Below, one piece after another: positions 11,580-41,628 of a stretch of 64,000 nt of DNA. The DNA comes from Polytrichum commune (taxonomy: Eukaryota > Streptophyta > Polytrichopsida > Polytrichales > Polytrichaceae), in the NCBI GenBank assembly GCA_950295325.1, contig OX485803.1:4092001-4156000 (forward strand). Direction: 5' to 3'. Numbering within the stretch: position 1 is the first letter of the stretch; every line of letters starts with the position of its first letter. Below the pieces are notes generated by a model. The model was not told the DNA's origin and did not search any database. It was given only the letters and a program-made list of their open reading frames with translations. Both the position numbers and the translations under genes were made by a program.

Positions 11580-12665
11580 GGGTGCATGTGACTAACTTAA
11601 CAGGTGCACAAAAGTACACGGTAGAGGAGTCTGTAGGTGTAGGGTTTAAGGTTTAGGTTTAGGGTGTACGCTGTGCTTATGGAATTGGTGATGGGGGTTT
11701 CTTTCTCACAGGTTTGGTCTTCCAGATTGGAGTTCAGTGCTTTCGAGGAGTTGAGTTTCTGGGCACACGCACACACACATACAGACATAACATACTAATT
11801 TAGTTGTGAGAGAATAAGAGGCAAAACTTGAATTTGCAAATGTGGGTGAATGTGAACAGGTGTAGGGTTTAGGGTGTACGCTGTGCTAATGGAATTGGTG
11901 ATGTTTTATTTCTTTCTCATGGGTTTGGTGTTCAATTTGAAGTTCATTGCTTTCGGGGAATTTTGAGTTTCTGGGCACACGCACACACACACACATACGG
12001 ACAAAACATACTTAGTTAGTAGTGAAGGAAAAGGAGGGAAAACTTGGTTTTGCAAATTGTGGATGAATGTGAACAGGTGCACAAAAGTACGCAGAGGAGG
12101 AGTCTGTAGGTGCAGGGTTTAGGGTGTACGTTGTGATGATTATGAATGAAACTGGTGATGAACGTTTCTTTCTGATGGGTTTGGATGGTGTTCCAGATTA
12201 AATTCATTACTTTTGGGATTTTTTGGGCACACATATTTGGACATAAGAAGGCCTAATTGTGTAGTAAAACCTAATCTCAAACTCAGCAATCGAATTCGAT
12301 ATTGTAGGTGAAGTGACGAGTATACGGAGAAGAAGCTTGTAAGTCAAGCAGGGGTACTTGGTATTGGTTCTTCTGGGTTGGACTTGGACTTGGGAATTGG
12401 AATCGGAGGTGTTCCTGGGCATCCGGTTAGTTTTGTATTCCAAATTGGAGCGGGGTTATGAGTTTTTGGGCACACACATTCGGACATAACAAGGCCTCAC
12501 TCTGTAGTAAAACCTGGTGTTCAACTAAACACTCGAATTTGATATTGTAGGTGAAGTGAAGAGTACACAGAGAAGGAGCCTGTAAGTCAAGCAGGGGTAC
12601 TTAGTGTTGGTCTTCTAGGGTTGGATTTGAAGTTGGGAATTGGAATCGGAGGTGTCTCTGGGCAC
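11580..12665 (+). repeat. Tandem 190-250-bp units with telomere-like motif upstream of UBE3D-like gene
   Basis: Five related units can be followed by the phrase TGGGCAC at about 11,760, 11,971, 12,221, 12,462 and 12,659. Each carries the order GTGCACAAAAGTAC or equivalent, GGAGTCTGTAGGTG or a diverged form, a GGTGTTC/TTCCAGATT block, then GGGCACAC plus ACATA. The first three units include degenerate plant telomere motifs (TAGGGTTTAAGGTTTAGG near 11,640). The last unit runs directly into the start of the gene at 12,689. The array probably overlaps the promoter and 5'-UTR. It is not a true telomere, because the motifs are few and imperfect. Confidence 0.65.
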
Positions 12666-17825: not shown

Positions 17826-18256
17826 TAGATAACCGATCGCTCATCCAAGTGGAGGGCGCTTCCCTTGCTTTTCCCTATCCATGAAGGCAACATTTCATCC
17901 ATAACCTTTACTTTACATTCATGGGCCGACCAGTTATGATCAATAACCAGCTCATCCAAGAAAGAATACATAACCGCTTGCTCATCCAAGTGGATGACGC
18001 TTCCAACAACTCTCCTGCATTTTCTATCTACACATACAACATTTCATCCATAAACTTTACTTTACATTCGTGAGAAGATCGGTTATGATCGATAACCAAC
18101 TCATCTGAGGGTAAATACATAACTGGTTGCTCATCCAAGTGGAGGGAATTCCCAACAACTCTCTTGCATTTTCTATCCATGTGGACAACATTTCATCCAC
18201 AACCTTTGACTTTACATTCATGAGCAAATTGGTTATGATTAATAACCAATACATAG
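17826..18256 (+). repeat. Tandem 142-149-bp repeat, about three units
   Basis: The phrase ATAACCG...TTGCTCATCCAAGTGGA occurs at about 17,828, 17,969 and 18,118, each followed by TTTTCTATC, CAACATTTCATCCA, ACTTTACATTC and GGTTATGAT...ATAACCA. The array lies just upstream of the HNH gene start and could overlap its promoter. Overlapping small ORFs on both strands are by-products of the repeat. Confidence 0.75.
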
Positions 18257-20116: not shown

Positions 20117-23100
20117 TCAGAGCCAGATGCCAATTTCTGATGTTCCCCCTTCCTTCACGCACGCTCGGAACATGCCTGTGGTGTTGAAAGGCATCACCAC
20201 ATCGCCAGTGGCAGACACAGCCACCAAGCCACCCATGCCTTTGGGCAGACGCTTGACCACCACTTCTTCAGCGGCCTCAGCCAACGATGCGTTCTTGTAC
20301 TCCATGATAGCTGCAACCTCACGTCCCACTGTGGCTTTGATGATGGCTTCGCCCCTTCCGGTTGCCGAGACTGCGCACAAGTGGTTGGCGTAGTTGCCAG
20401 CCCCCACAAGAGGAGTGTCCCCTGTTGACAGAAACACTACAATATTGTTAGGCCGTGTGAGCCCGTGACCATTGAATTCTACAATGGCCTTTGCTGGAAA
20501 ATGGCCAGACCATCCCACTTCACTTTACAGTAGCAGAGCTTGAGGGCGTAAGGGACCAAGGAAAGTTGGATAGGATGAGAAACCTACATGGGTAATGTTC
20601 CATGGTCTATTGGAATTTGCGTCATTCCCATTTTGATGTGGTGGGTCTAACACAAACCGGGAGACCATGGCACTTCAACATCTCACAACCCTTGATTTAT
20701 TATAACTTCTTGTGTAAAAGGGCTCAGATGAATAGGATGGTAATGATATAGATTCGATTGACCCCTGTCTCGCATGTCCTTATACTACACTTGAAGGCTC
20801 CTCACAACGCAAAATTCAATTTCAATTTTCCATAGTGTGGCCTTCAGATGCGTTTACAATTTCATGGTTTCACAATTTACATTATGGCCCTTGGCTATAT
20901 AGTAAAGTGGCCCTCAAGCTCAAGGAACAAATCTCCAAGAACCAGAGTCCTCATTTCTAGAAACGAATGTCAAGCATACTCAAGCTGCAAGTTCCTATTA
21001 GTCCTCACCCCCTCTGAATCTATCTTAAGACATAGAAGCGTTCGCATATTCTCAAATTAAGGCTTAAAATTGCACAATTACCTCTTCCTTGGCTTTTGAT
21101 ACTTGCAGCAAAGTGCCTTTCCATCCCGGTCTTACAGCAAACATTCTTATGATTCTACATTGGATGATCATCAGTATCGTCCATCAACGTTTGCATTACA
21201 ACTTACAAGATGGTTATCTACCTACTCCATTTGGACCAAGCTTGTTCTAAAAAGAAATTTTGAGTGGGTCTTGTGTTAAAGGAACTCCGAGTGTACATCC
21301 TAGCTCAAGGAACACTGAGAAGAAAAATGTTCTTATTTGATATTGATTGCAGTAGAAGCAAGATCGCAAGACTTAAAACCATTTTTCTTCCCAGTGTTCT
21401 CAAGAAACAGGAGACGAGGATTAGTTAATGTCGGTTCGAAAATGGCTTTATGCAAGTTGAAAGCCTAAAAAACATACCTAACTTCCCTAAAAGAAGAATA
21501 CTTTCCAGCCAAGTCTCATTAATTGACTGCAAGAGTCTCACGATGCAAAAGACTACTATATGCTATTGGGGGTGCTATTCATAGTGTTTTCGCCGATTGA
21601 CACTGTAGCGGGAACATCCTCTAGCATACAGAAGAAGGCAGCCGTGTCATGCCAAATCTAGAAAATCGTTTAGAAGTTGAATTGCATCAAATTGCATCAC
21701 AGGAATTGTGGGAGGTACAAGGTTACCTATACGTCCGAGCATTTTGTTCACTAAACCCCCGGTGGAAGTAGCAGCGGCACAATGCCCTTGGTTATCCACG
21801 ACAACGCAGCCTACGGTTTCGAATTCAGGTTTTGGAGCCTGAGTCTTTGATGCCCTTGTTTCATGGAGTTCTTGTGCTGGCTCATCTGAGCTTAGAGCTG
21901 CCAGGTTTTTTGTAGAATGTTGAGTATAGTCTAACTGCAAAATTCACCATAAAGTTCGTCAGCTGTTGTCTCTGGACCAGAAGTCTCCAGATTGCTGCAC
22001 ACAACTGGAGGTTCCATTATAGCTCATACGTGAAGGTAAGGAAAATAAGATTCAGCATCTTGAGACTCTTCCTTAACTAGTCCTATTCTCCTGTTTATGA
22101 AGCATTATATAAATGATCCTTAATATGTAGAGTGCATCATCACGCAACACATTCCCGTCGGTTAGCTCAAAACATTCCAGCCAAGGTGTATGAAACCCCA
22201 AAGTACCTGGACCATGTTCTTCTCATGAGCCCGTGCAAGACGCTCTTGATTTTCTTTCGTTATAAAGTAGCCAGGCTCTTTGGTTTGAACACCCTGCCAC
22301 AACATCCACCCAAACAACTTTATTGAGTGTCAGACGAGACTTTGCTTCCTTGATACGGAACCGAGTTTGTTTATGTATGTTAGTAGCTATGGCGGAGAAG
22401 CTCCCCAACCTGCTGCCTCGCGAATTCTTCTGCCCCTTCGAATGCAAGGTAAATGTGCGGTGTCTTCTCCATGATCAGGCGTGCAAGACTTATGGGATGG
22501 AGCACAGTGGAAAGACCCGAAACGGCACCGCAACTCATCGTGGCCCCATCCATTATACATGCCTCCATCTCCACGGTTCCATTGGTCGTCAACACTGAAC
22601 CTCGCCCGGCATTGAAGACTGGATTGGCCTCCAGTTCTTTCACCTGCGCCCATACCGAGATAAAGTTTTCAAGGATCTTGCAAGAAGAAACACAAGCGAA
22701 TAGATGGCAATAGATGACGGAACTGGATGTGTTTAGATGCCATGGCCTTCAGAGACACGATTCTCTCCTAAAGTTGTAATGGTCATCTTGAGAGACGCGC
22801 AGAAGATATAGTCCTTTACTGGCATCGGACACACGCCGCAAGAAACATGCATGTGTGACCGTTACCTAAATGAAGTAACCTAACCTGCCGCGGAAAATGA
22901 GGACCTGGGGTTGTACAAGAATTGTTTCCTGAACCTGTATCCCGAATGTAAACTATGCCAAGAAACATTAACTGACCACAAGCTCCGCGACGTCGAGGGC
23001 ATTCTGCTGCGATTGCAAAGCGGATACTCCCAGCTCAAGGCATTGGTGCAAGCAGGCCAACGCTGCATCTTTCCTCGCCGTTGGCAAGTCCTTGGATATG

Positions 23101-28249: not shown

Positions 28250-28560
28250 GCTTAGGTTCTAGTAAATGTTGCTTCCCAAATACGCATACATTTCCAAATA
28301 TGCGAAGTGAACCCTTTCGTTTTTGTATATAGATGCAAACCTTTCAACTCTGTTACGAACCTCTCACCGGTTGGCAATTTGTTTCTTGACAACCAAATCT
28401 CAAAGTAAAGAATTGAAACCAACACCAATTTTATTTCTTCCTCTAAGTACAAACCGCAACCAATTAAAGTTTGGTCAACGAAGCTCTACAACCCGACCAT
28501 AGGAGAGAGACAAAAAAAAATCCTCTCTCCTCCCCCGAGCTTCTCTTATGGCGAAGCACT
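28250..28560. other. Non-coding lead-in to the hairpin array
   Basis: No gene. Short inverted repeats are already present, for example CGCATA/TATGCG at 28,283-28,304 and GGTTG/CAACC near 28,369-28,394. The end of the segment is a TCTCTCCTCCC-rich stretch. Confidence 0.4.
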
Positions 28561-29100
28561 ACTTTTACTTTCTATATTTACATTTAGTAAAAGTATTCTA
28601 TTCATAGCTCTATCTCATAGTTCTACTATGAATCTTCTATCTTTGGTTCTTCTAGAACCTTCTTTCATCTCTTATCTCCATTCCATTCTTCCAATTGGAA
28701 CTGTCTAATTCCAATTGGATTCATCCATTCTTCTTTCTAGTTGGAACTGTCTAATTCCAACTAAATACATCCATCCTTCATTCCAGTTGGAACTGTCTAA
28801 TTCCAACTAATTCATTCATTCAATCTTCTAGTTGGAACTGTCTAATTCCAACTAGCTTTATCTATTCATTGAGAGTTGTCTAACTCCAATGAATAACATT
28901 CATCTTTCCAAATATGGAGTGGTTTAACTTCTGTGCACCTCATCGAGAGTTGTCTAACTCATGTGCACATGTTCTCAATTGGAATGGTCTAGTTCCAATG
29001 CACTAAATGCGGAGCTGTCTAACTCCAGTGCACATGTTGTCAATCTGGAGTTGTCTTACTCCTTTCCATTCATCTTCAACTGAGAGTTGTCTAGCTCTCA
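28561..29100. repeat. Array of short hairpins with constant loop and varying stems
   Basis: At least ten consecutive units at spacings of about 30-50 bp share an 8-nt loop of consensus YTGTCTAR flanked by inverted repeats. Examples are 28,691-28,718 (10-bp stem CCAATTGGAA), 28,738-28,763 (9 bp), 28,785-28,808 (8 bp), 28,828-28,855 (10-bp CTAGTTGGAA), 28,863-28,895 (9 bp plus bulge plus 3), 28,978-28,999 (7 bp), 29,011-29,026 and 29,047-29,062 (4-bp GGAG/CTCC) and 29,081-29,100 (6-bp TGAGAG). One unit near 28,915 is degenerate. Stem sequences differ but stay paired; the loop-closing pair is A-T in the first four and G-C in later ones. Upstream inverted repeats with other loops lie at 28,561-28,594, 28,600-28,633 and 28,645-28,659. 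No known element recognised. Confidence 0.8.
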
Positions 29101-29198
29101 TCTTTTTCTGCTTACACACTGGCACATGTAATTAGAATATTTCTCAATAATTTTAGTTACATTACAAATTCCTCCCAAACTTTTTGCTTTACTGGGTT

Positions 29199-29310
29199 GA
29201 GATTGAAATTGAAATTGAGAATTGAGAATTGAAATTGAGAATTGAAATTGAGAATTGAAATTGAAATTGAGAATTGAGAATTGAGAATTGAAATTGAAAT
29301 TGAAATTGGG
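29199..29310 (+). repeat. GAAATT/GAGAATT minisatellite
   Basis: About 17 units alternate between the 6-mer GAAATT and the 7-mer GAGAATT. Read on the minus strand it gives meaningless Ile/Ser/Asn/Phe-rich ORFs. Confidence 0.9.

Positions 29311-39189: not shown

Positions 39190-41628
<2,439 letters not shown>

What the first reader, a model, noticed from the sequence alone, without database searches (positions are those of the whole stretch)
28561..29100. Tandem hairpin array: constant 8-nt loop, stems that change but stay complementary
Seen directly: about ten units with loop YTGTCTAR and stems such as CCAATTGGAA, CTAGTTGGAA, ATTGGAA, GGAG and TGAGAG, each with its exact complement on the other side of the loop. 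Simple tandem duplication followed by mutation would break pairing; here both sides have changed together, including the loop-closing pair. Either structure is maintained (an RNA or cruciform function), or the stems are repeatedly re-copied from each other by hairpin templating. I know of no plant repeat family with this architecture.
Basis: partly seen in the sequence, partly recalled or inferred. Interest (0 to 1): 0.8.

Follow-up and report, generated by a model that had tools for sequence, protein, structure and literature searches.

The report
Palindrome array inside a retrotransposon LTR
The "hairpin array" is the regulatory half (U3) of a solo LTR left by a plant Ty3/gypsy retrotransposon; its eleven repeated palindromes really are kept complementary, most likely as a cluster of transcription-factor-type sites like those known in another retrotransposon group, so it is a good new example rather than a new kind of thing.

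Summary
Window 28690-29100 contains eleven units with a constant YTGTCTAR-type centre (on the minus strand, YTAGACAR) and complementary flanks. The array folds far below shuffles on both strands (z -8.8 and -8.3). Across 407 distinct units, 68% of stem cells are Watson-Crick, against 16-37% when one arm is slid and 26±7% under a tree-based null.

The array is not free-standing. It fills the U3 part of an 816-bp solo LTR (28351-29166, minus strand; 5-bp flanks AACTC/AATTC) of a Ty3/gypsy chromovirus. Intact relatives carry gag, integrase plus chromodomain, a tRNA-iMet primer site and a polypurine tract. The genome holds at least 1,403 exact core units. LTR copies carry 6-12 units each.

Best explanation: an enhancer-like array of dyad sites working as DNA. 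The test that should reveal RNA selection fails: at the varying stem pair, sense-strand G·U (32) is no commoner than A·C (42). RNA hairpins in the 3' UTR, and arm-to-arm template switching, remain possible.

New here: a chromovirus host, an AT-rich motif, and arms that vary while the centre stays constant.

The parts
28351..29166 (-). Solo LTR of a Ty3/gypsy chromovirus (sense strand = minus; TGTAATGTAACT...GTTCGTAACA)
   Evidence: Homology to other copies stops at these bases; only copy in the window and no internal retroelement sequence; orientation from PBS and PPT of intact relatives
28346..28350 (.). Target-site duplication, left copy AACTC
   Evidence: Read beside the LTR end; one mismatch to the right copy
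29167..29171 (.). Target-site duplication, right copy AATTC
29081..29100 (-). Unit 1: TGAGAGC-TAGACA-ACTCTCA
29047..29062 (-). Unit 2: GGAGT-AAGACA-ACTCC
   Evidence: one search shows TTAGACA in sister families
29010..29027 (-). Unit 3: TGGAGT-TAGACA-GCTCCG
28978..28999 (-). Unit 4: ATTGGAAC-TAGACC-ATTCCAAT
28947..28960 (-). Unit 5: GAGT-TAGACA-ACTC
28916..28931 (-). Unit 6, degenerate here: GAAGT-TAAACC-ACTCC (GGAGT-TAGACC-ACTCC in most copies)
28863..28895 (-). Unit 7, long arms: TATTCATTGGAGT-TAGACA-ACTCTCAATGAATA
28828..28855 (-). Unit 8: CTAGTTGGAAT-TAGACA-GTTCCAACTAG
   Evidence: part of a 46-bp tandem repeat
28783..28810 (-). Unit 9: TTAGTTGGAAT-TAGACA-GTTCCAACTGG
28736..28765 (-). Unit 10: TTTAGTTGGAAT-TAGACA-GTTCCAACTAGA
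28690..28719 (-). Unit 11: TCCAATTGGAAT-TAGACA-GTTCCAATTGGA (two double transitions and one T·G-to-C-G change relative to unit 10)
28561..28659 (-). Three further single hairpins without the TAGACA centre (28645-28659, 28601-28632, 28561-28594), just before the presumed promoter/start of R

Best explanation
This is the U3 region of a solo LTR of a Ty3/gypsy chromovirus. It carries an enhancer-like array of about eleven quasi-palindromic (dyad-symmetric) units. SHOWN: the LTR, its orientation, its family, the unit array, gain and loss of units between copies, and pairing kept well above chance. INFERRED: each unit is a double-stranded DNA binding site whose two arms contact the two halves of a dimeric or paired host transcription factor. 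A change in one arm is then matched by the same change in the other, and neither strand of wobble is favoured. Repeating the site raises or tunes transcription of the element from the downstream promoter. Tandem duplication of 36- and 46-bp segments supplied the copies. The hairpins seen by folding would be a by-product of dyad symmetry, possibly also a source of small RNAs for the host.
For: LTR bounds, near-identical target duplication and absence of internal sequence. Intact copies have LTRs 5,302 bp apart, a PBS complementary to tRNA-iMet, a PPT, gag and integrase with chromodomain. At least 1,403 exact GGARYTAGACARYTCC cores against 3 for the reversed pattern. Pair 2 is Watson-Crick in 1,329 of 1,403 (94.7%), with G·T 32 and A·C 42, so symmetric for the two strands as a DNA-level constraint predicts. 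Inner arms stay RRRR/YYYY; the flipped stem YTCC...GGAR occurs 13 times and looks like another repeat, so the sequence, not only the pairing, is kept. Unit number varies 6-12 between complete LTRs. Position upstream of a TATA-like stretch and AAATAAA is where LTR enhancers sit; Sirevirus LTRs have palindromic motif clusters in the same place.
Against: No binding, promoter or RNA data were available, and the TATA box and R boundary are guesses from sequence. The centre TAGACA is as constant as the arms, which a plain dimer site with a passive spacer would not predict. Most variants seen are post-insertion decay, so the strand-symmetry test has limited power for the active lineages. At consensus level G·U slightly exceeds A·C (12-15 vs 7-8), not significantly.
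Confidence: 0.55

Rival explanations
1. RNA function: U3 of the 3' LTR is part of the genomic RNA's 3' UTR, and the units act there as stem-loops with a constant UUAGACAR loop, for example as repeated protein-binding sites for packaging, export or stability, or as precursors of host small RNAs.
For: Constant loop with varying paired stems; sense strand folds better than antisense over the whole LTR (-240.9 vs -204.9 kcal/mol) and over the array (-131.9 vs -118.7); pair 1 is often T·G on the sense strand (113) rather than C·A (66). Maize Sirevirus palindromes attract small RNAs (PMC10760457).
Against: No G·U over A·C excess at pair 2 genome-wide (32 vs 42) or on internal branches (29 vs 23). 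Array z-scores are nearly equal on both strands. Almost no stem flips.
Confidence: 0.2
2. Mutation, not selection: hairpin-templated correction (template switching between arms during reverse transcription or replication) re-copies one arm from the other and keeps the palindromes perfect without any function.
For: Units 10 and 11 differ by two double transitions and one T·G-to-C-G change; symmetric G·T and A·C intermediates fit a strand-blind process; such correction is documented for hairpins in rRNA genes (PMC8794818).
Against: 0 of 528 units have an inverted centre, so switches through the loop are not seen, although the intrastrand form spares the loop. Only about five double Watson-Crick changes on tip branches in pairs 2-8 against roughly 170 single losses of pairing, so genomic copies decay rather than self-repair. 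Arms keep a purine/pyrimidine pattern that correction alone does not explain.
Confidence: 0.17
3. Ordinary tandem duplication of one palindromic unit followed by independent drift; the apparent co-change is inheritance only.
For: A-T/G-C switches at pair 2 may have happened only a few times; tree-corrected mutual information is not significant for any single pair.
Against: Watson-Crick 68% vs 26±7% under independent evolution on the tree (0 of 300 as high); same-unit 77% vs cross-unit 57%; slid controls 16-37% and 0 of 20,000 arm shuffles.
Confidence: 0.05

Closest known systems
Sirevirus palindromic repeated motifs (RM boxes; Osr10, OPIE-2, PREM-2, HOPIE and others), PMC2829016; siRNA link summarised in PMC10760457
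   Same: Dyad-symmetric motifs, at least eight per element, clustered in the upper half of the LTR upstream of the TATA box; potential hairpins; proposed cis-regulatory role
   Different: Sireviruses are Ty1/copia, this is a Ty3/gypsy chromovirus. Their RMs (all but Tnd-1) share a CGG-CCG core with few intervening bases and are mostly over 85% identical within an element; here the arms are GGAR/YTCC, the 8-bp centre is constant and the arms differ between units. In maize, Ty3 elements lack such a structure peak (PMC10760457).
Tnt1 U3 regulatory repeats (symmetric box I, discussed in PMC2829016; box II from general knowledge)
   Same: Repeated and symmetric U3 elements that activate an LTR promoter and differ between subfamilies
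   Different: Ty1/copia, fewer and shorter units, different sequence
Template-switch maintained hairpins (Monttinen and Loytynoja 2022, PMC8794818)
   Same: Multi-base compensatory change with conserved loop
   Different: Described for rRNA genes; here arms decay at tips and no loop inversion is seen
Retrozymes (PMC4918200)
   Same: Structured RNA motif in a plant LTR element
   Different: Those carry hammerhead ribozymes and are non-autonomous; no Rfam family matches here and intact relatives code for gag-pol

Membership tests
Ty3/gypsy chromovirus LTR | LTR with TG...CA-type ends and short target-site duplication | tested here: met
   TGTAATG...CGTAACA, AACTC/AATTC with one mismatch; CCGAT and ATGAG in younger copies
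Ty3/gypsy chromovirus LTR | Primer-binding site and polypurine tract next to the LTRs of intact relatives | tested here: met
   TGGTATCAGAGC after the 5' LTR and AAGGGGGAGATT before the 3' LTR, minus strand
Ty3/gypsy chromovirus LTR | Gag and integrase with C-terminal chromodomain | tested here: met
   PF03732, PF19259, PF17921, PF24626, PF00385 in internal pieces of L015/L016; the window copy itself has no internal part
Ty3/gypsy chromovirus LTR | Domain order RT-RNaseH-integrase; clade (Tekay, CRM, Reina, Galadriel) | not tested
   Only the two ends of the internal region were read
Sirevirus repeated motifs | Host element is a Ty1/copia Sirevirus | tested here: not met
   Ty3-type gag/capsid and chromodomain integrase
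Sirevirus repeated motifs | CGG-CCG core signature | tested here: not met
   Core is GGAR-YTAGACAR-YTCC
Sirevirus repeated motifs | At least eight palindromic units in U3 upstream of the TATA box | tested here: inconclusive
   Ten to eleven units in the first 480 bp of the LTR; TATA box only inferred from sequence
Retrozyme | Hammerhead ribozyme in the LTR | tested here: not met
   No Rfam family at gathering score in the whole window
RNA structure under selection | Covariation beyond phylogeny with G·U tolerated over A·C | tested here: not met
   Pairing is kept, but G·U is not favoured and no single pair is significant

The most novel reading that the evidence does not exclude
The units are RNA stem-loops in the retrotransposon's 3' UTR: a repeated, loop-specific protein-binding array (packaging or export signal) whose stems are kept complementary by both selection and arm-to-arm template switching during reverse transcription. 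This would be a structured array not described for plant chromoviruses.
Probability: 0.13. Interest if true: 0.7.

Novelty: new variant of a known kind. Interest (0 to 1): 0.36.

Why it matters
It extends palindrome-rich U3 arrays, described mainly for Ty1/copia Sireviruses, to a Ty3/gypsy chromovirus with more than a thousand units in one genome and recently active members. Because the arms vary while the centre stays fixed, and many copies exist, it offers a natural test of whether such arrays are kept as DNA binding sites, as RNA hairpins, or by templated mutation. It also warns that coupled stem changes alone do not show RNA function; the G·U versus A·C comparison is a simple extra test.

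Tried and rejected
Rfam scan of the whole window: nothing, so no known ribozyme or RNA family. MITE/foldback or stand-alone satellite: rejected, because homology runs exactly to LTR ends with near-identical target duplications, and array borders are not insertion borders. A full element in the window: rejected, only one LTR and no internal sequence. Element on the plus strand: rejected by PBS and PPT. APC-corrected mutual information as proof of covariation: not significant per pair. Loop-closing pair covariation: not found. Heat-shock or auxin-response sites: considered from memory (GAA/TTC spacing, TGTC core); spacing or symmetry does not fit and no motif library was on hand, so no factor is named. 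Literature search for the same array in a chromovirus found none in the held library; the LORE1 chromovirus paper mentions no such motif.

Full report
WHAT IS THERE. The minus strand of window 28690-29100 holds eleven units of the form arm - Y TAGACA R - complementary arm, spaced 30-46 bp. The four nearest the downstream end lie in a 46-bp tandem repeat. Folding gives z -8.8 on the minus strand and -8.3 on the plus strand for the array, and -2.5 for the rest of the LTR. The first 120 bases of the reported interval (28561-28680) contain three other hairpins without the constant centre.

WHERE IT LIES. The window is part of a 408-Mb genome, a plant by the retroelement type. A search with the array finds at least 40 scored near-copies on all seven large contigs. 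Alignment of the loci shows homology running exactly from 28351 to 29166. Many relatives come as pairs 5,302 bp apart. Beside them are the reverse complement of TGGTATCAGAGC (tRNA-iMet primer site) and of a polypurine tract, so the elements read on the minus strand as seen from the window. The internal ends encode a Ty3-type gag/capsid and an integrase with chromodomain: a Ty3/gypsy chromovirus. The window copy has one LTR only, no internal sequence, and near-identical 5-bp flanks, AACTC/AATTC: a solo LTR. In the sense direction the array occupies about bases 67-480 of 816. A TATA-like stretch (about 587) and AAATAAA (about 730) follow. I therefore infer that the array is in U3; no transcript data were available.

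HOW COMMON AND HOW VARIABLE. The exact core GGARYTAGACARYTCC occurs 1,403 times in the genome, against 3 for the reversed pattern. A positional sample of 36 loci from the first 26 Mb of contig 1 shows several related LTR families at about 77-89% identity to this one, and more diverged ones that share only parts. Complete LTRs carry 6-12 units.

IS PAIRING KEPT? I collected 407 distinct units by the centre alone, without a stem rule. Pairs 2-8 are Watson-Crick in 68% of cells; sliding one arm gives 16-37%. Evolving the columns independently on a tree of the units gives 26±7%, with 0 of 300 as high. Within one LTR, arms of the same unit match at 77% and arms of different units at 57%. Arm shuffles among 19 cluster consensuses never reached the observed value. 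Stem pairs rank 1, 2, 7, 9, 11 and 14 among about 500 column pairs in corrected mutual information, but none is individually significant (best E 2.6). So pairing is kept, while event-level covariation is only moderately supported. The pair next to the core does not co-vary.

DNA OR RNA? If single-stranded RNA were selected, G·U on the sense strand should be tolerated more than A·C. At the most variable inner pair the genome has G·T 32 and A·C 42 among 1,403 (p 0.30). On internal branches of the tree, losses to G·U and A·C are 29 and 23 (p 0.49). Cluster consensuses show 12-15 G·U and 7-8 A·C, not a clear excess. Inner left arms are nearly always purine-rich and right arms pyrimidine-rich; flipped stems are nearly absent. 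A strand-symmetric, sequence-specific constraint fits a double-stranded dyad site better than an RNA stem. The limits are that many variants arose after insertion, when selection no longer acts, and that the sense strand does fold somewhat better.

TEMPLATED CORRECTION. Units 10 and 11 differ by two double transitions and one T·G-to-C-G change, which is what arm-to-arm template switching would also give; the process is documented (PMC8794818). Against it as the main force: no unit among 528 has an inverted centre (the intrastrand form of switching would spare the loop), and genomic copies lose pairing on tip branches far more often than they double-change. It may have helped to create stems in active elements.

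COMPARISON WITH WHAT IS KNOWN. Sirevirus LTRs carry 3-14 palindromic repeated motifs per LTR, upstream of the TATA box, with proposed cis-regulatory roles (PMC2829016). In maize these palindromes form hairpins that attract small RNAs, whereas Ty3 elements there lack an obvious structure peak (PMC10760457). The present array works like these in position and symmetry but is not one of them: its host is a Ty3/gypsy chromovirus, the CGG-CCG core is absent, and the constancy sits in the centre rather than in the whole motif. I found no description of this array in the held literature, which covers only open-licence papers.

VERDICT. Real, more than chance, transposon-borne, and a new variant of a known kind. 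The most likely function is a U3 enhancer array of dyad sites; that step is inference.

Noticed in passing
L015/L016 and L019/L020 (G000:C7): The youngest subfamily has identical LTR pairs and LTR ends TG...TA instead of TG...CA, with 5-bp target duplications CCGAT and ATGAG; recent activity with a non-canonical terminus.
   Followed up: partly
window 28561-28659: Three further hairpins with unrelated loops just upstream of the presumed promoter, the largest with a 9-10-bp stem, present in other copies too.
   Followed up: partly
window 29197-29308: Imperfect (TTGAAA/TTGAGA)n microsatellite beside the solo LTR, outside it.
   Followed up: no
window 12220-12664 and 17888-18249: Tandem repeats of 243 bp (1.8 copies) and 149 bp (2.4 copies).
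   Followed up: no
window 20117-20518 (-) and 41089-41628 (+): Exons of an asparaginase-2 family enzyme and of a Ras/Rab-type GTPase, the genes identified on either side of the LTR.
   Followed up: no
G000, 13 places: TTCCTTAGACAAGGAG, the flipped-stem form with the same centre, recurs 11 times identically; probably another dispersed repeat.
   Followed up: no
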